In this document: in pieces, positions 9,791 through 22,676 of the stretch | Layout: every line of letters starts with the position of its first letter | How positions within the stretch are numbered: the first letter of the stretch is position 1 | IMG/VR virus record: IMGVR_UViG_3300008262_000231 | Span: 13,248-77,247 of that record | Strand: one strand, 5' to 3' | Length of the DNA stretch: 64,000 nucleotides | Source of the DNA: a virus | Program-made: the position numbers and the translations under genes | Notes under the pieces: generated by a model | What the model was told of the DNA's origin: nothing | Database searches by the model: none | Seen by the model: the letters and a program-made list of their open reading frames with translations, nothing else

Positions 9791-11563
9791 ATGATTAAGA
9801 ATTTTCACGATTATTTAAATGAAGCTTCCCTAAGAAATCACCCAGCATTACCTGGAGGTAAAGAAGGAACTGATTCATATAGAAAAGAAACCGAAATATA
9901 TTCCAAAGAACAAGTAAGGGAGATAGAAAGAAGATATGGTCCAGATATGGGACGTCTACCTTCTATAGCTGCTGAAGTTCAAAGAATGCAAATGGGTCAC
10001 GAAAGAGATCTAGAGATACTAGCGGAGAAAGCTATTAGATTCTTATATGGAAGAATTATAGAAGATGTGACTTTAGATGTTAAATTTCCAGATCCAAATG
10101 AGATCAAAAAAATGATGCAAGATGTTCCTAGTAAATCTCCTAAAGAAGTACCAGAAATACCGGAATTCCAAGAACTAAAATCTAAAGAGATTATATCAGA
10201 AATCCAAAAAAGGAAAATAATCAATAATATCATGCAGGGAGAAGCGGTAAATTCTAAGAAAGCTTTGAATCTACCCGAGGTTAAACAGGGCCTTGTTAAA
10301 ATAATGGGTCAAGAAAAAGCTGATGAATACATAAGACTTCTAAATAAACTCACTGATATAGCTCAATCTTTCTATTGGATTGTTCCTGTAGAAGTACAAG
10401 AAATGATGTGGCAGACCAATAAAGGAGGAATGTCAGGAGCTGTAAAAGTAGATTGGGAGAATAAAGAGAAAAAAGACGAGGACTTAGCAAAAGATATCCT
10501 AGATGATATCGAAAAAAATGGAGCCGAGGATTTACCTAAAGAAGTTGAAGATCTTTTCTATGAAACCCAACCGACCATACATGCAAGGGGACAAGATTTT
10601 GCTATGCTCATTCACGAAACTGTAAAAGGTGTCTATGAATTAATTGGAGCTATTGCAATTCCTGAAGATGAGGAGACAGCAAAAACAGTTCTTATGAATA
10701 CGGATTCATTAGCAGATGAGATCGAGGACATTAGAAATGGTCCTAAAATGGCCGCTGATATCAGAAATTACTTGAACACATTTACAGAGATCAAGAATGA
10801 CGAGATTCCTAATCTAAGAGAACATGTAATGGGAGCTTTATTTACTTACCCTGCTCCTGAATTTAATGATATTATACTTTCCATACTATCCAATTCTGAC
10901 AAATATAGAGGAACTATACAGGAAATAATCGATGATGTAATCTCTCAAGTAAGAGAATTCGAAGCAGGAGAAGCTTTGGACGGAAACGGAATAGATAACG
11001 ACGACAATTATAATCCACAAGGAAAAACTTCAGCTCCAGAGAATACAGATTATTCCACTTTAGATGCATCCCAATTAAAAGATATTCTAAATACGATAGA
11101 TTATTCTAGCCTTTCTAAAGAAGATCTAGAGAGTTTATTGGATGCTGCTGTGAAATTCGAGTATTACGAAGAAGCTAGATCTATACATACCTACATAAAA
11201 GATCACCTAAAAGAATCTGAATTTGCAGACAGGGTTTGGGAAAAAATCCACGAGCGTGGAGGGTATCCGTCAAATCCTGATCTTTCTCGAGTTAATGAAT
11301 CCGAATCTTTCAATGATCTATATAAAGGAACTACTTTAACTATAGATGTAATAGATGGAAGAACTAGGAGTAAAAAAGGAACTATAAAGACTAGAATAAA
11401 TGAAATGGTTCTAGAAGGTAACTCTTATTTTCTGAAATGCTCAGGAGATGTTAATATAGTTTACGATAAAGACACGAAGGAATTTGTAGAAGGATATAAA
11501 CCTCAATACCTAGTTTATTCTGTAGATGAATCAAATTCGCAAATTTTGGATTTTTTAAAATAA
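9791..11563 (+). CDS. large tagged virion-type protein, function unknown
   Basis: A 590-residue acidic, mostly helical protein with one of the cleanest tags: MIKNFHDYLNE then ASL. A central region (about residues 260-290) contains QPTIHARGQDFAMLIHETVK followed by GVYELIGA, which looks conserved and reminds me of a protein in other large phages, but no enzymatic motif can be assigned; HETVK is not a zincin motif. A linker rich in D, N and G (about 395-415) separates a C-terminal helical repeat-like region (DYSTLDASQLKDILNTIDYS) and a small beta domain at the end (TIDVIDGRTRSKKGTIKTRI). It lies in one transcription unit with 9499-9780. Candidate abundant internal head protein. Confidence 0.78.
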   Translation: MIKNFHDYLNEASLRNHPALPGGKEGTDSYRKETEIYSKEQVREIERRYGPDMGRLPSIAAEVQRMQMGHERDLEILAEKAIRFLYGRIIEDVTLDVKFPDPNEIKKMMQDVPSKSPKEVPEIPEFQELKSKEIISEIQKRKIINNIMQGEAVNSKKALNLPEVKQGLVKIMGQEKADEYIRLLNKLTDIAQSFYWIVPVEVQEMMWQTNKGGMSGAVKVDWENKEKKDEDLAKDILDDIEKNGAEDLPKEVEDLFYETQPTIHARGQDFAMLIHETVKGVYELIGAIAIPEDEETAKTVLMNTDSLADEIEDIRNGPKMAADIRNYLNTFTEIKNDEIPNLREHVMGALFTYPAPEFNDIILSILSNSDKYRGTIQEIIDDVISQVREFEAGEALDGNGIDNDDNYNPQGKTSAPENTDYSTLDASQLKDILNTIDYSSLSKEDLESLLDAAVKFEYYEEARSIHTYIKDHLKESEFADRVWEKIHERGGYPSNPDLSRVNESESFNDLYKGTTLTIDVIDGRTRSKKGTIKTRINEMVLEGNSYFLKCSGDVNIVYDKDTKEFVEGYKPQYLVYSVDESNSQILDFLK

Positions 11564-11587: not shown

Positions 11588-11595
11588 GATATATA
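11588..11595 (+). promoter_or_regulatory. putative late promoter motif GATATATA
   Basis: GATATATA 23 nt before the ATG at 11619, the first OmpA-domain gene. Confidence 0.65.
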
Positions 11596-11618
11596 AATCA
11601 TTAAATTAAAAAAAGAAC

Positions 11619-12878
11619 ATGAAAACAAGACCAGTATTTGAAAGTTACGAAGAATTCGTATATGCAATCAAAAATGCCATTTATGAAGCCGAAACAGGAG
11701 AAGGAAGCATAGATGCTTTAAATAAACTTCTAGGCGGAGGATTAAAGATGGCAAACACAGATTTAAAAAATCTTAAAATAATTGTAGATGGTATGAACAC
11801 CATGATGACTACAGCAGCGGCTGAGGAATTTAAAGAATGGGCTCAGAATATATCCGATTATTTTAGTAAAGGGGAGGAAGGAGTAAAGCCTTCTACAGGA
11901 AATGTTGCTTTAGTAAATACCCTTGATTCGTTCGATTGGCTTGTTAACGGTACAGTTAGGGTTAAAGGAGAACCTAGAATGAATGATACCGGTAATGGAG
12001 GTCTTTACGGTACTGGATTTAGAGAAGACGATACTTCGATAAATACCCCTATATCTGATATTCTTAGAGGTATATTTGCTTACAATTTGCAAGTTCTTTC
12101 TGAAATAGTAGATAAAGCAAAATCTTCAGGTAAAGAAAAAACATGGAAACAATCCAATGGGGGTAAAAAAGGAACAGGAAAATTTGAAGGATTTTCTCCT
12201 TTTCTGTCGATAGATGAGAATTCTCTAAAAGGGGATATAATTCAAGTAGTTCCGTATACAGGTGCCGTAGGAGGTAAATCCGCTTACGAGTATGGATTTA
12301 TTTTCCCCGTATACACAGTATATAAAATATCTAAAGGATCGGGAAAAGCTTTAGGGACTGAAACTTACGAAGAAGTAATTAAACCAGCTGGAAATTCCGA
12401 AGAAATTATCGATAAACCTTACAATTCTTCGGGAGTAGATTTCTTTGCAGAAAATGCGGTAGTAATAGGAAAAGACGGAATTGCAGCTCTAAAATCTATT
12501 ATTTCTGAGTTTAACTCTATAACAACGATTAAAGTTAACGGGGGAGCATCTAGTAAACCAACTTCTAGAGCTGGAGGAAACGAGCAACTCGCTAAAGATA
12601 GACAAGCAGCAGGAATTAAAGCTTTACAGGATTTACAAAAAGCAGGAGTTGAGCAGTTGAAAGGAACTAAAATTGAAGCTGGAGAAGCTAAAGTTCAAGA
12701 TGCAGCAGAGGAAAGCGATCCTAAAAACCAACAAGTATCTTTTATTATCTCCGGTAACATTAAAACAGTAACGGGAACGGATAACAAAGAGACAATAATC
12801 CGAACAGTTAATAATTTAAAAGCTGACAGATTACAACTTAGACAGTATAACATTTATTTGGTATTTAATATAGCTTAA
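11619..12878 (+). CDS. tagged OmpA-domain protein, copy 1
   Basis: A 419-residue protein. The leader begins MKTRPVFESYEEFVYAIKNA and continues to IYE before AET, fitting the tag. Residues about 280-380 form an OmpA/MotB-like C-terminal domain: ITTIKVNGGAS, the helix GGNEQLAKDRQAAGIKALQ and the closing NQQVSFIISG, aligning with the NxxLSxxRAxAV and NRRVEL blocks of peptidoglycan-binding OmpA domains. The middle is beta-rich and Gly-rich with no family call. A phage protein carrying a peptidoglycan-binding fold and a head-targeting leader could anchor other ejected proteins at the cell wall; this is inference. Paralogous to 13574-14968, with an identical MKTRPVFES start. Confidence 0.82.
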   Translation: MKTRPVFESYEEFVYAIKNAIYEAETGEGSIDALNKLLGGGLKMANTDLKNLKIIVDGMNTMMTTAAAEEFKEWAQNISDYFSKGEEGVKPSTGNVALVNTLDSFDWLVNGTVRVKGEPRMNDTGNGGLYGTGFREDDTSINTPISDILRGIFAYNLQVLSEIVDKAKSSGKEKTWKQSNGGKKGTGKFEGFSPFLSIDENSLKGDIIQVVPYTGAVGGKSAYEYGFIFPVYTVYKISKGSGKALGTETYEEVIKPAGNSEEIIDKPYNSSGVDFFAENAVVIGKDGIAALKSIISEFNSITTIKVNGGASSKPTSRAGGNEQLAKDRQAAGIKALQDLQKAGVEQLKGTKIEAGEAKVQDAAEESDPKNQQVSFIISGNIKTVTGTDNKETIIRTVNNLKADRLQLRQYNIYLVFNIA

Positions 12879-12894
12879 TAATTTTTAAAACTAA

Positions 12895-12930
12895 AAAAAA
12901 GCCTGAGAATCTTGATTCCCAGGCTTTTTT
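12895..12930. terminator. bidirectional Rho-independent terminator
   Basis: The 11-bp arms AAAAAAGCCTG (12895-12905) and CAGGCTTTTTT (12920-12930) bracket a GAATC...ATTC inner pairing. A and T runs on both sides serve the convergent genes ending at 12878 and 12945. Confidence 0.88.
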
Positions 12931-12944
12931 ATTGGATTTTATTT

Positions 12945-13433
12945 TTAGTTATTTTCGATATATTCAGAAATTTTATTGCTTTCTTCCATGATACCTTCTC
13001 GAGTAATATTATTATCTACGATAAATCCGTATCTGATAAGCCCACCGTATTGTTCTGTAGCAACTGCTGAGAAATCGACATAGTATTTTTTAATTGTGGT
13101 TTCTCCGAAGTAAGGACTATTAAAAAGGTATGTCTTATATTCTGAAACTAATCTTTTTGCTTGATCTATTTCATTTTCTTTCAAATTGACCATTCCCCCT
13201 TTTTTAGATCCGTAGCAGATTGGATAACCTGCTTCTTCCTGTGAAGTTGCTCTTGCTGCGAAGTTATTTGTGGTATCCTCTATCATTCCTGGAAATTGGG
13301 ATAACATTTCTGATGTTAATGTCTTTTGAAATAAATCAATATCAAATCCTTTATCTGGATCTTCTACCCCTTTTGTTTGTGCATTAATTGATGTCCCTAA
13401 TGCTAACGCTAAAACTAAAACTAACTTTTTCAT
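12945..13433 (-). CDS. secreted/periplasmic protein with signal peptide, copy 1
   Basis: A 162-residue protein with a clear signal peptide: MKKLVLVLALALGTSINAQ, cut before TKG. The NAQ end is common in Flavobacteriia secreted proteins. The mature part has no recognised family. Features shared with its paralogue (15056-15532) include VEDPDKGFD, DLFQKTL, NFAARA, ENEIDQAKRLV, KKYYVDFSAVATEQYGGLIR and IVDNN. The conserved KKYY...YGGLIRYGFIVDN block suggests one compact alpha/beta fold. It has no GATATATA motif; instead CATATTTG (near TAnnTTTG) lies 37 nt upstream, as in the paralogue. It may act in the host periplasm during infection, for instance in exclusion or envelope modification. The gene could have come from a host. 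Confidence 0.82.
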   Translation of the reverse strand: MKKLVLVLALALGTSINAQTKGVEDPDKGFDIDLFQKTLTSEMLSQFPGMIEDTTNNFAARATSQEEAGYPICYGSKKGGMVNLKENEIDQAKRLVSEYKTYLFNSPYFGETTIKKYYVDFSAVATEQYGGLIRYGFIVDNNITREGIMEESNKISEYIENN

Positions 13434-13470
13434 GGCTCTTAAAAATTAAATTAATAAATTGTTTATAGAT

Positions 13471-13478
13471 CAAATATG
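13471..13478 (-). promoter_or_regulatory. possible host-type -7 box, conserved in duplicate
   Basis: CATATTTG on the minus strand (7 of 8 to TAnnTTTG) is 37 nt before the start. The same box at the same distance precedes the paralogue at 15532. Confidence 0.4.
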
Positions 13479-13533
13479 GGATATTATCTTGTAAGAAAAA
13501 AATAAAAAGATCCAAAAAAATAAAAAAAAGAAA

Positions 13534-13541
13534 GATATATA
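13534..13541 (+). promoter_or_regulatory. putative late promoter motif GATATATA
   Basis: GATATATA 32 nt before the ATG at 13574; the longest leader of the set. Confidence 0.62.
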
Positions 13542-13573
13542 ATTCAATTAATTTAAAAATTTAAAATAAAAAT

Positions 13574-14968
13574 ATGAAAACAAGACCAGTATTTGAAAGC
13601 TTTAATGATTTTGTTATTAGCTTATATAACAAAATAAATGAAGCAGAATCCAACCTAGGAAACGTAGATGCACTAAATGAATTGATAGGCGGAAAGATAA
13701 AAGATTTTTATGGGGGAAGTACGAATGCCCAATCTTCTAGAGACGTACTATCATACTTAATTTCGGGAGATGGAGAAACTTCCGTGGGACTAAATGGAAT
13801 GGTAACTGAAGCTTCTGGTAAAAGAATAGTAGCAAACGCCCAATCGATATCTTCATACCTTTCTAACAAAAAGACTGTATTTGGCCTTAATACAGATAAA
13901 AGCGCAGGTGATGATGGTGAATCTCTAATTATATCGCAAAAGCCTTTAAGCAAGTCTGGACAGGAAATGAATAGGATATATTCAGGAACAATTAAGGTTT
14001 CAGGTAATCCAGAAACCCAAGACGGAAAAACTTGGACCATAAATACTAACGAAAAAACTGTTCCTTTATCTGGCCTTTTGACTTCTATTTTTGAATATAA
14101 TTTATACGTATATTCTAGTTTTTTAAATTCTACTGCGGCAAAACAAACAAGAAAAGGGGAGGAATCATTAGATTCGGATACTCAAGTAAAAAAATTCCAA
14201 AATTTATTTAGATCCGAGGTACAGGATAAATTACTACAGCTAGACGAAAACACGCTAAGCACTGATGTTAAACAAGTAGTCGAAGCTGATTATAATTTAC
14301 TATTAGAAACGGGTAAAGCCAGCAGTGATCTAGGCGCGACTATGTCAGATCTAGACGGATCTTATCAAGCTTTAATAGCTGGATACTATATAGATGAATT
14401 TTTACCTAACCGAGGAGGATTATTAAGTCTTGAATATCTAAAAGAGATTGCTCCTCCTACAAATAAGGGAACTGAGGTAAAAGGAAAGGTATTTACTTCG
14501 CAGGGAACAAACTTCTTTGGAGAGAATAAGGTTGTAATAAGCGAAGATGGAAAAGCATCTATAGCAGGAATTATCTCTAGATTTAATTCCATATCTGAGA
14601 TAGTTGTTAACGGGGGAGCATCTAATAAAAACACTGCAAGAGAAGGAGGGAATGAAAAACTTGCAGCAGATAGGAGAGATGCAGGAATAGCACTTTTAAA
14701 AGAATTAAAAACAACAGCAAAGGTAGAACAGCTCTTAAATGCTACGATTACTCCAGGAACAGCAAAAGTTCAATCTGATTACGAACCTTCTGATGCCGAG
14801 AATCAGCAGGTAACTTTCGTAATCACTGGGGTTGAGAAAGGAAATCCTGCACAAACGGATAAGCCTGTCGTAATAGAAAAAGCATCAGAAAAAAATGCAG
14901 ATCAAGCTATTATTACTAGAGTAGTTATAGGAATAGGAATAGATGACTATGGTAAAATGACTGAATAA
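13574..14968 (+). CDS. tagged OmpA-domain protein, copy 2
   Basis: A 464-residue paralogue of 11619-12878. The leader begins MKTRPVFESFNDFVISLYNK and continues to INE before AES, a canonical site. The OmpA-like domain spans about residues 320-425: ISEIVVNGGAS, GGNEKLAADRRDAGIALLK, then NQQVTFVITG. The middle is longer than in copy 1, with an insertion of about 45 residues, and has diverged, while the leader and the OmpA core stay close. That pattern is expected if targeting and wall binding are the constrained functions. A terminator hairpin follows at 14994. Confidence 0.82.
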   Translation: MKTRPVFESFNDFVISLYNKINEAESNLGNVDALNELIGGKIKDFYGGSTNAQSSRDVLSYLISGDGETSVGLNGMVTEASGKRIVANAQSISSYLSNKKTVFGLNTDKSAGDDGESLIISQKPLSKSGQEMNRIYSGTIKVSGNPETQDGKTWTINTNEKTVPLSGLLTSIFEYNLYVYSSFLNSTAAKQTRKGEESLDSDTQVKKFQNLFRSEVQDKLLQLDENTLSTDVKQVVEADYNLLLETGKASSDLGATMSDLDGSYQALIAGYYIDEFLPNRGGLLSLEYLKEIAPPTNKGTEVKGKVFTSQGTNFFGENKVVISEDGKASIAGIISRFNSISEIVVNGGASNKNTAREGGNEKLAADRRDAGIALLKELKTTAKVEQLLNATITPGTAKVQSDYEPSDAENQQVTFVITGVEKGNPAQTDKPVVIEKASEKNADQAIITRVVIGIGIDDYGKMTE

Positions 14969-14993
14969 TTAAAAATAATCTAAAATAAAAAAT

Positions 14994-15027
14994 AAAAAAC
15001 CTAGGAATTTTAATTCCTAGGTTTTTT
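14994..15027. terminator. bidirectional Rho-independent terminator
   Basis: A near-perfect inverted repeat of 16-base arms centred on CCTAGGAATT/AATTCCTAGG with A and T runs on both sides, between convergent genes ending at 14968 and 15056. Confidence 0.9.
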
Positions 15028-15055
15028 GTGAAATAAAAAATTTAGATTGTATGAT

Positions 15056-15532
15056 TTAATCTTTTGGGTATGTTACATTATTACATACCGATTCTCTTAC
15101 AAAATTATTATCTACTATCATTCCGTATCTAATGAGACCCCCGTATTGTTTAGTAGCTACTGCTGCAAATTCTACGTAGTATTTTTTAAGAGCTTCTTCT
15201 CCCCCTAAATATTTATCATTAAGAAGTTCCTGTTTATATTCCAATACTAATCTCTTAGCTTGATCTATTTCATTCTCTTCCGTATTAACCATTCCTACCT
15301 TTCTGGTTACAAAACAAGGAATATAATTAGCTTCCTTTTGATTCCTAGCTCTAGCTGCGAAATTTATCGTAGTATCTTCTGACATCCAGTCGAATTGAAC
15401 CCCCATCTCTTCTATTAAGGTTTTCTGGAAAAGATCAAAATCAAATCCTTTATCCGGATTTTCTACCCCTTTTGTTTGTGCATTAACTAAAGTACCTAAT
15501 GCTAATGATAAAACTAAAACTAAATTTTTCAT
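15056..15532 (-). CDS. secreted/periplasmic protein with signal peptide, copy 2
   Basis: A 158-residue paralogue of 12945-13433. The signal peptide is MKNLVLVLSLALGTLVNAQ, cut before TKG. Shared blocks include VENPDKGFDFDLFQKTL, NFAARA, NEIDQAKRLV, KKYYVEFAAVATKQYGGLIR and IVDNN. The C-terminus differs (VCNNVTYPKD against the acidic tail of copy 1). Two Cys residues are present in the mature region, which could pair in the periplasm. It has the same upstream block and CATATTTG box 37 nt before the ATG. Keeping both copies with intact signal peptides suggests selection for dosage or for two related targets. Confidence 0.82.
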   Translation of the reverse strand: MKNLVLVLSLALGTLVNAQTKGVENPDKGFDFDLFQKTLIEEMGVQFDWMSEDTTINFAARARNQKEANYIPCFVTRKVGMVNTEENEIDQAKRLVLEYKQELLNDKYLGGEEALKKYYVEFAAVATKQYGGLIRYGMIVDNNFVRESVCNNVTYPKD

Positions 15533-15569
15533 GGCTCTTAAAAATTAAATTAATAAATTGTTTATAAAT

Positions 15570-15577
15570 CAAATATG
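15570..15577 (-). promoter_or_regulatory. possible host-type -7 box, conserved in duplicate
   Basis: CATATTTG on the minus strand at the same 37-nt distance from the start codon as in the paralogous gene, inside a block that is nearly identical in both copies. Confidence 0.4.
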
Positions 15578-21884: not shown

Positions 21885-22676
21885 ATGAAAAATCTAAAAA
21901 AATTCAACGATCTAGTTCAAGAAGGATTTTTTGATCATGAGGTATTGGGTACTTTCGGGAATGTTATTAAAGATACTATGTCTTCTTCGGTAAATACCGA
22001 TAGTATAGAAAACGAAACAGAATTAGAGGGGTTACCCGAGCCAGGAGGTTCTTTCTCAAATTCTCCCGCAGGAAAAGGAATGCCTTTAGATTCTAATGCT
22101 ACTTTATCTGCTGAGCAATATGATTCATACGGATCTAAGGTAGGAATATCCGACAAATCGGATAATGCTAAACTAGAACAGCCATCATCCGGACCAGTTG
22201 GAAATATTGTAAATTCAGCATATGCTAATTTGAATGTTCCTACTAGAGGAATTCCCGGAACAGGAAGAGGAAATCTCGGATGCGGAGCAGGAACTTCTTT
22301 AATGTTCTACCGAGCTACCGGATATTCTTTAGCAGGAAATACTAAAGTTTGCCTAAGTACTCAGACTATATACGACGAGTTAGAAGCAAAAAGCAAAGAA
22401 CCGATGTCTGCTTGGAAAAAAATAGACAACTGGAGAACTAATTATAAACCGGGAGATATTATAGTTACGCGAAGGGGAGGAAGAGCTGGACACGTAGGAA
22501 TAGTTGTTAATGATGGAAATATAATATCTAATTCTTCTTCTGGATTTGCAGGAGATAAAAGTGGCCAGATAGAGCAGAACTACACCATAAAATCCTGGGA
22601 AAGTGTAGCAAAAAGAAATCCTTCTAAAACCGCAATATTCAGATACCAAGGCCCTTATAAGAATAACTGGTCTTAA
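21885..22676 (+). CDS. tagged NlpC/P60- or CHAP-like peptidoglycan hydrolase
   Basis: A 263-residue predicted wall-cleaving Cys hydrolase. The leader MKNLKKFNDLVQE followed by GFF fits the tag. Residues 25-105 are a low-complexity Ser/Asn/Gly linker. The catalytic domain follows: RGNLGCGAGTSLMFYRATGY with the nucleophile Cys133, then YKPGDIIVTRRGGRAGHVGIV with His203 and a polar residue downstream. This Cys...PGDIIV...GHVGIV layout is typical of the NlpC/P60-CHAP superfamily, which cuts peptide stems or the amide to muramic acid. It has its own promoter motif 14 nt upstream, and its stop shares a base with the next start (TAATG). If packaged, it could open the wall from inside on entry. Confidence 0.85.
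   Translation: MKNLKKFNDLVQEGFFDHEVLGTFGNVIKDTMSSSVNTDSIENETELEGLPEPGGSFSNSPAGKGMPLDSNATLSAEQYDSYGSKVGISDKSDNAKLEQPSSGPVGNIVNSAYANLNVPTRGIPGTGRGNLGCGAGTSLMFYRATGYSLAGNTKVCLSTQTIYDELEAKSKEPMSAWKKIDNWRTNYKPGDIIVTRRGGRAGHVGIVVNDGNIISNSSSGFAGDKSGQIEQNYTIKSWESVAKRNPSKTAIFRYQGPYKNNWS

What the first reader, a model, noticed from the sequence alone, without database searches (positions are those of the whole stretch)
11588..15577. Duplicated module pairs a tagged OmpA-domain protein with a secreted protein
Two copies keep promoter, terminator, convergent gene order and an upstream block with CATATTTG. In the OmpA proteins the leader and the peptidoglycan-binding core are conserved while the middle has diverged; in the secreted proteins signal peptide and YGGLIRYG block are conserved. 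The retained linkage suggests that the wall-binding protein and the periplasmic protein act together, perhaps during entry or in shielding the infected cell.
Basis: partly seen in the sequence, partly recalled or inferred. Interest (0 to 1): 0.62.

Follow-up and report, generated by a model that had tools for sequence, protein, structure and literature searches.

The report
Paired virion-delivered and secreted phage proteins
Some very large T4-like phages of Bacteroidota-type bacteria carry a two-gene unit: one protein appears to be packed in the virus head and delivered into the next cell, the other is exported by the infected cell; the two always occur together and vary together, which suggests that they recognise each other, perhaps to shut out rival phages.

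Summary
Two tandem copies of one unit lie at 11588-15577: box GATATATA, gene A (OmpA-like C-terminal domain, non-Sec leader), two-way hairpin terminator, convergent gene B (signal peptide) with its own (T/C)ATATTTG box. I found the unit in six phage records, nine A genes in all; every A has a convergent B, a hairpin and both boxes. Other relatives lack both genes at the home site; none has one alone. In one record the unit sits elsewhere. A and B subtypes travel together, and B genes within a genome share promoters, usually signal peptides too, in front of diverged bodies.

The leader of A fits a T4-type capsid-targeting propeptide: genome-wide leader class, [ILVM]xE|[ASG] sites, gp21-type protease and gp23-type capsid in relatives. 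The OmpA-like fold is well supported; peptidoglycan binding is not shown (the diaminopimelate-binding Asp is Ser in 8 of 9, the Arg is kept).

Most likely A arrives with the virion and B is exported by the infected cell, so they meet on infection, possibly as a superinfection-exclusion pair working like T4 Spackle and gp5. The pairing is well supported; the function is inferred.

The parts
11588..11595 (+). GATATATA box (virion-gene type promoter element) of A1
   Evidence: 31 nt before the A1 start; same box before A2 and before all nine A genes in six records, and before tail-fibre and head genes
11619..12878 (+). A1: 419 aa, capsid-targeting-like leader, variable middle, OmpA-like C-terminal domain
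   Evidence: ORF; homology to A2; OmpA-like fold of the family
11619..11687 (+). leader of A1 (residues 1-23, possible cleavage IYE|A)
   Evidence: leader class enriched genome-wide; cleavage-like sites in all nine A proteins
12432..12752 (+). OmpA-like domain of A1 (approximate)
   Evidence: alignment with A2 and relatives, profile match to OmpA structures
12895..12930 (.). two-way hairpin terminator between A1 and B1
   Evidence: 16-pair stem; an equivalent hairpin lies between A and B in all nine pairs
12945..13433 (-). B1: 162 aa secreted protein, type I
   Evidence: ORF, signal peptide INA|Q and hydrophobic core
13471..13478 (-). CATATTTG box of B1, close to the Bacteroidota sigma-A -7 box TAnnTTTG
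   Evidence: (T/C)ATATTTG before all nine B genes, 43-45 nt in the three closest records; consensus from PMC9723704
13534..13541 (+). GATATATA box of A2
   Evidence: 40 nt before the A2 start
13574..14968 (+). A2: 464 aa, same architecture as A1
13574..13642 (+). leader of A2 (residues 1-23, possible cleavage INE|A)
14498..14836 (+). OmpA-like domain of A2 (about residues 309-421, model pLDDT mostly 70-85 by 10-residue block)
   Evidence: AlphaFold model, Foldseek hits to OmpA/MotB domains
14994..15027 (.). two-way hairpin terminator between A2 and B2
   Evidence: 15-pair stem, conserved
15056..15532 (-). B2: 158 aa secreted protein, type I
15570..15577 (-). CATATTTG box of B2
   Evidence: 45 nt upstream of the B2 start

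Best explanation
The unit is a cognate pair. A is made from the virion-gene promoter class, carries a T4-type capsid-targeting propeptide, is packaged in the head, trimmed by the prohead protease and ejected into the next cell, where its OmpA-like domain acts at or near the cell envelope. B is made by the infected cell from a host-type promoter and exported through its signal peptide to the periplasm. In the producing cell the inner membrane would keep A (cytoplasm, then virion) and B (periplasm) apart, so they meet only when A arrives with an incoming virion. The most likely purpose is that B neutralises the A of a second phage of the same type: superinfection exclusion with self-recognition, working like T4 Spackle against gp5. 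Tandem duplication, diversified bodies and matched A and B subtypes would follow from competition between related phages. Shown: architecture, pairing, co-segregation, fold, signal peptides, leader class, the matching protease and capsid genes in relatives. Inferred: packaging and ejection, timing, contact between A and B, exclusion. My rough odds: pairing as a unit 0.95, A packaged 0.8, B periplasmic 0.9, A and B interact 0.65, exclusion 0.4.
For: Unit: nine of nine A genes in six records have a convergent B, a hairpin, GATATATA before A and (T/C)ATATTTG before B. Home site: five records with both genes, six with neither; in G009 the pair sits elsewhere. Subtypes: clear type I A (G000 x2, G001, G004 first) with type I B, clear type II A (G002 second, G004 second, G007, G009) with type II B. 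Leader: 44 of 210 proteins carry the leader motif, against a shuffle mean of 10 and maximum of 21; the tighter spacing aromatic-x-x-aromatic-[ILVMA]-x-E is in 15, against 1.2 expected and a shuffle maximum of 4. Cleavage-like [ILVM]xE|[ASG] within 35 residues in all nine A. Peptidase_S77 over the curated cut-off in all six relatives larger than 170 kb and a Gp23 capsid protein (2e-41). T4 capsid-targeting propeptides are 10-19 residues, with targeting at residues 4 and 7 and processing at 8 and 10 (PMC9026906); T-even internal proteins share only this sequence (PMC3012670). Fold: 29 Foldseek hits at E<=0.001, those listed being OmpA, MotB and related envelope domains; OmpA over Pfam's cut-off in G004's second A (1.8e-7). 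All nine B have a hydrophobic signal sequence; no A has one. A bacterial protein (L013) fuses a type I and a type II B domain, as expected if B confers protection that a host could capture. Precedent: Spackle is an early periplasmic T4 protein that binds and blocks the virion's gp5 lysozyme (PMC7677548).
Against: No experiment shows A in virions, B in the periplasm, or contact between them. T4 internal proteins are described as ejected into the cytoplasm, where a periplasmic B could not reach them. The A leader is longer than most leaders of the class, and its cleavage site lies about 10 residues beyond the T4 position. No protease gene lies in the window's own 98.7-kb fragment. The early timing of B rests only on a host-like -7 box, which is not enriched before genes overall. 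The B model is poor (mean pLDDT 53) with no fold match. One pair (G002 first) cannot be placed firmly in either A group. Only six phage records carry the unit.
Confidence: 0.4

Rival explanations
1. A and B cooperate in one infection: A is delivered with the virion and sits in the envelope near the entry point, B is exported soon after and joins it, to stabilise or reseal the wall or to shield the infected cell. This is.
For: Both could reach the periplasm; strict linkage and co-segregation fit a complex as well as an inhibitor pair; the fold is that of peptidoglycan-associated domains.
Against: The diaminopimelate-contacting Asp is missing in 8 of 9 A proteins; A and B bodies diversify rapidly and B bodies are swapped behind constant 5' ends, which is more typical of recognition conflicts than of a housekeeping task.
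Confidence: 0.25
2. A is a packaged anti-defence or host-takeover protein acting in the cytoplasm (like T4 IPI or Alt), with the OmpA-like fold reused; B is a separate periplasmic accessory protein carried along in the same cassette.
For: T4 internal proteins are diverse with only the targeting sequence conserved (PMC3012670) and many act in the cytoplasm (PMC9026906); the window genome has many proteins with such leaders.
Against: Mere neighbours would be expected to separate sometimes; here nine of nine stay paired, one pair has moved as a unit, and the A subtype tracks the B subtype.
Confidence: 0.2
3. A is a structural head-core or assembly protein and B a secreted protein released for use outside the cell; the pairing reflects shared descent of a small clade.
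For: The GATATATA box precedes virion genes; the records with the pair at the home site are related.
Against: The pair is accessory: six relatives lack it at the site, and G009 carries it elsewhere; the A middle regions are 12-32% identical between copies in one genome, unusual for a head-core protein.
Confidence: 0.1

Closest known systems
T4 internal proteins IPI, IPII, IPIII and Alt with capsid-targeting sequences
   Same: N-terminal propeptide with aromatic residues and an [ILV]xE cleavage-like site, diverse bodies behind a conserved leader, lineage with gp21-type protease and gp23-type capsid
   Different: A is 412-494 aa with an OmpA-like domain and slightly acidic; the T4 internal proteins IPI-III are small and described as basic; no T4 internal protein is known to me with a paired secreted partner
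T4 Spackle (gp61.3) and its target gp5 lysozyme
   Same: Small exported phage protein made in the infected cell, facing a virion-borne protein that acts in the envelope (PMC7677548)
   Different: No sequence relation was tested or seen; gp5 is a tail enzyme, not a head-packaged OmpA-like protein, and as far as I know the two are not organised as a convergent, duplicated pair
OmpA-like peptidoglycan-associated domains (PF00691; OmpA, MotB, TagL, FopA)
   Same: Fold and N..L...R signature; one relative passes Pfam's cut-off; closest sequence match is the FopA1 domain (2e-8)
   Different: The TD motif is replaced by GxAS, Asp to Ser in 8 of 9; no membrane anchor and no signal peptide, a capsid-targeting-like leader instead
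Ejection proteins of giant phages such as phiKZ and SPN3US
   Same: Large load of head-packaged proteins cleaved after glutamate by a T4-like prohead protease (PMC5694885)
   Different: SPN3US propeptides are mostly above 100 residues and cleaved at AxE; those here are about 20-35 residues with [ILVM]xE

Membership tests
T4-type capsid-targeted internal proteins | short N-terminal propeptide with targeting aromatics and cleavage after Glu | tested here: met
   leader class 44/210 against 10 in shuffles; T4 spacing 15 against 1.2; cleavage-like sites in all nine A. In A the site is displaced by about 10 residues, so the match is to the class, not exact; cleavage itself is not shown
T4-type capsid-targeted internal proteins | gp21-type prohead protease and gp23-type capsid in the lineage | tested here: met
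   Peptidase_S77 in six relatives, Gp23; the protease is not in the window's own fragment, its Gp23 is
T4-type capsid-targeted internal proteins | presence in the virion head and ejection into the host | not testable with these tools
   needs virion proteomics
OmpA-like domain (PF00691) | OmpA-like alpha/beta fold | tested here: met
   AlphaFold core pLDDT mostly 70-85 by block, Foldseek 29 hits at E<=0.001; G004's second A over the Pfam cut-off; window proteins themselves below detection
OmpA-like domain (PF00691) | Asp and Arg that bind diaminopimelate (D271 and R286 of A. baumannii OmpA) | tested here: not met
   Arg invariant, Asp is Ser in 8 of 9; residue roles from PMC6572160
Superinfection exclusion pair (works like Spackle and gp5) | exported protein made by the infected cell | tested here: inconclusive
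   signal peptide in nine of nine B and host-type -7 box fit; actual export and timing not measured
Superinfection exclusion pair (works like Spackle and gp5) | binds a virion protein and blocks a second infection | not testable with these tools
   needs binding and plaque assays; only co-segregation is shown

The most novel reading that the evidence does not exclude
A self/non-self recognition system of huge phages: diversified head-delivered OmpA-like proteins matched by diversified periplasmic immunity proteins, exchanged as cassettes behind constant promoters and signal peptides, and captured by a bacterium as a two-domain protein (type I plus type II B) that could protect it against phages carrying either A type.
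Probability: 0.3. Interest if true: 0.82.

Novelty: new variant of a known kind. Interest (0 to 1): 0.6.

Why it matters
If right, it links two separately known ideas, head-packaged injected proteins and periplasmic exclusion proteins, into one mobile, subtype-matched pair in some of the largest phages, whose many packaged proteins have no known roles. It gives a direct, testable prediction (B of one subtype blocks only phages with the matching A) and a possible new source of envelope-level phage resistance in Bacteroidota.

Tried and rejected
Pfam and PHROGs on all A and B proteins: nothing for B, OmpA only in relatives. Protein search of annotated phage genomes with five A or B queries: no match. 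B structure: low confidence and no fold match, so not used. Homology between B types I and II: not detectable by profile comparison, so I do not claim it. Search of 395 Bacteroidota genomes for B: only the known MAG, plus one marginal hit with stops, discarded. Sigma-70 promoter scan: no more sites than in shuffles, uninformative here. Codon-level selection: synonymous sites are near saturation between copies (pS 0.63-0.74), so no positive-selection claim is made; what can be said is that B bodies are under purifying selection (pN 0.23 against pS 0.74 in the window). Nuclear-import tag of phage-nucleus jumbo phages as an alternative for the leader: not pursued, since the capsid, protease and gp32 point to a T4-like lineage.

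Full report
What is there. The window is part of a 98.7-kb virus record. Between 11588 and 15577 lie two copies of the same arrangement: gene A rightward, a hairpin, gene B leftward. All four frames are open. A1 and A2 are 34% identical, B1 and B2 69%. The hairpins are 16- and 15-pair stems followed by T runs.

What kind of phage. The record has gp32-like, gp5-like and helicase genes of T4 type and a Gp23 capsid gene. Its nearest relatives include records of 348, 290, 250 and 482 kb and uncultured phage genomes of 635 and 642 kb. So the window is a fragment of a large, probably very large, T4-like phage. A Bacteroidota host is inferred from the relatives found (Flavobacterium, Prevotella and Bacteroides phages), the TAnnTTTG-type boxes and the Bacteroidota B homologue; it is not shown.

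The unit in relatives. Searches of viral contigs and of the records behind them gave six phage records with A: the window record G000 (two A), G001 (one), G002 (two), G004 (two), G007 (one) and G009 (one). Reading the neighbourhoods shows that every A has a convergent small gene with a signal peptide beside it. All nine intergenic regions fold into a strong hairpin (-16 to -29 kcal/mol). All nine A genes have GATATATA upstream and all nine B genes have (T/C)ATATTTG upstream; in the three closest records, where distances were measured, these lie 31-40 nt before A and 43-45 nt before B. The home site is directly downstream of a leader-bearing gene (590 aa in the window). Five records have the pair there, and six (G005, G006, G008, G009 and the two 635-642-kb genomes) have neither gene there. 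G009 has the pair at another place with different flanks. So the pair is accessory, mobile as a unit, and was never seen split in a phage. This is a small set of related records, and most are fragments.

Subtypes. The A tree has two supported groups (100/99 each): the window A1, A2, G001 and G004 first, and G004 second, G007, G009 and G002 second; G002 first is a long branch that cannot be placed firmly. The first group is paired with B type I and the second with B type II. Types I and II of B are not detectably related by profile. In G004 both kinds sit in tandem.

Cassette-like 5' ends. Within G004 the two B genes are about 98% identical from -80 to +60 and unrelated after that; in the first 25 codons pS is 0.05, in the rest 0.70. 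In G002 the 60 nt before the start are identical while the genes are not. In the window the first 25 codons have pS 0.17 and the rest 0.74. Recombination or gene conversion that keeps promoter and export signal while bodies differ explains this best.

The leader of A. Many proteins of these phages begin with short leaders such as MKNLKKFSDFINEA or MIKNFHDYLNEA. The motif is in 44 of 210 proteins against 10 expected from shuffles (maximum 21 of 300). A tighter form with aromatic-x-x-aromatic-[ILVMA]-x-E occurs in 15 against 1.2. In T4 the capsid-targeting sequence of internal proteins is a 10-19-residue propeptide, with targeting at residues 4 and 7 and processing at 8 and 10, cleaved by gp21 (PMC9026906), and T-even internal proteins share little else (PMC3012670). 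A gp21-type protease is over Pfam's cut-off in all six relatives above 170 kb, and the capsid protein itself has LNE|S near residue 43. The A leaders belong to this class, with FxxF[IVL] followed later by a cleavage-like [ILVM]xE|[ASG], though more stretched than the T4 form. A has no signal peptide. I therefore read A as a head-packaged protein (inference, about 0.8).

The OmpA-like domain. Pfam does not find it in the window proteins, but the model of A2 matches OmpA, MotB and related domains, G004's second A passes Pfam's cut-off, and the family profile finds OmpA structures (best FopA1, 2e-8). The two residues of A. baumannii OmpA known to bind diaminopimelate are D271 and R286 (PMC6572160). 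The Arg is invariant here, the Asp is Ser in 8 of 9. FopA1 has a similar GxAS motif, so this is a natural variant of the fold. Wall binding is possible but not shown.

B. All nine have a hydrophobic signal sequence, most with an AQ-type cleavage site. The -7 box consensus of flavobacteria is TAnnTTTG (PMC9723704); seven of nine B boxes fit it and the two in the window differ at the first base. A Bacteroidota MAG carries a 279-aa protein (L013) whose N-terminal part is 59% identical to B1 and whose C-terminal part matches type II B (5e-9 and 9e-7), next to ordinary bacterial genes. No A was found in that genome.

How it most likely works. A made in the infected cell would stay in the cytoplasm and enter heads. 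B would be exported. They are then on opposite sides of the inner membrane, and contact needs A to arrive with a virion. Subtype matching makes contact likely. The simplest purpose is protection of an infected cell from a second phage of the same type, as T4 Spackle does by binding the virion's gp5 lysozyme (PMC7677548). Cooperation of A and B soon after entry is the main rival, and a cytoplasmic role of A with B as a passenger is the next. I rate these 0.40, 0.25 and 0.20.

Novelty. Packaged T4-type proteins and periplasmic exclusion proteins are both known. A duplicated, subtype-matched, convergent pair of the two, with an OmpA-like packaged protein and exchanged 5' cassettes, was not found in the annotated phage collection, and the few literature searches made did not turn one up. 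I call it a new variant of a known kind.

Noticed in passing
L005:1590-3175 (record coordinates, outside the window): The Gp23-type major capsid gene of this record is split into two frames near 2486-2492, with about 55 residues of the relative's protein unmatched; an assembly error or a real lesion. An intact full-length gene exists in a relative (L072).
   Followed up: partly
record G000:C1 12258-13022, 35132-35923 and 95893-98427 (the second is window 21885-22676; the others lie outside the window): A family of proteins with leaders like MK..KKF.DF[IV]NE[AGS]FF or FL is scattered in several clusters; they look like a large set of packaged head proteins of unknown function.
   Followed up: partly
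L013:48-3731: The bacterial B homologue lies between secreted proteins that share a repeated domain (MSENLNVSTFRNGDPIP...), suggesting a variable surface or secreted-protein locus in the MAG.
   Followed up: no
window 9791-11563: The 590-aa leader-bearing gene upstream of the pair is a widespread neighbour in huge phages (40% identical in a 635-kb genome) and marks a site where accessory cassettes differ between relatives.
   Followed up: partly
L058:5742-8262 and L059:3561-4109: Type II B proteins of two phages share nearly the same signal peptide as a type I B in the first phage, evidence of exchange of 5' ends between unrelated bodies.
   Followed up: yes
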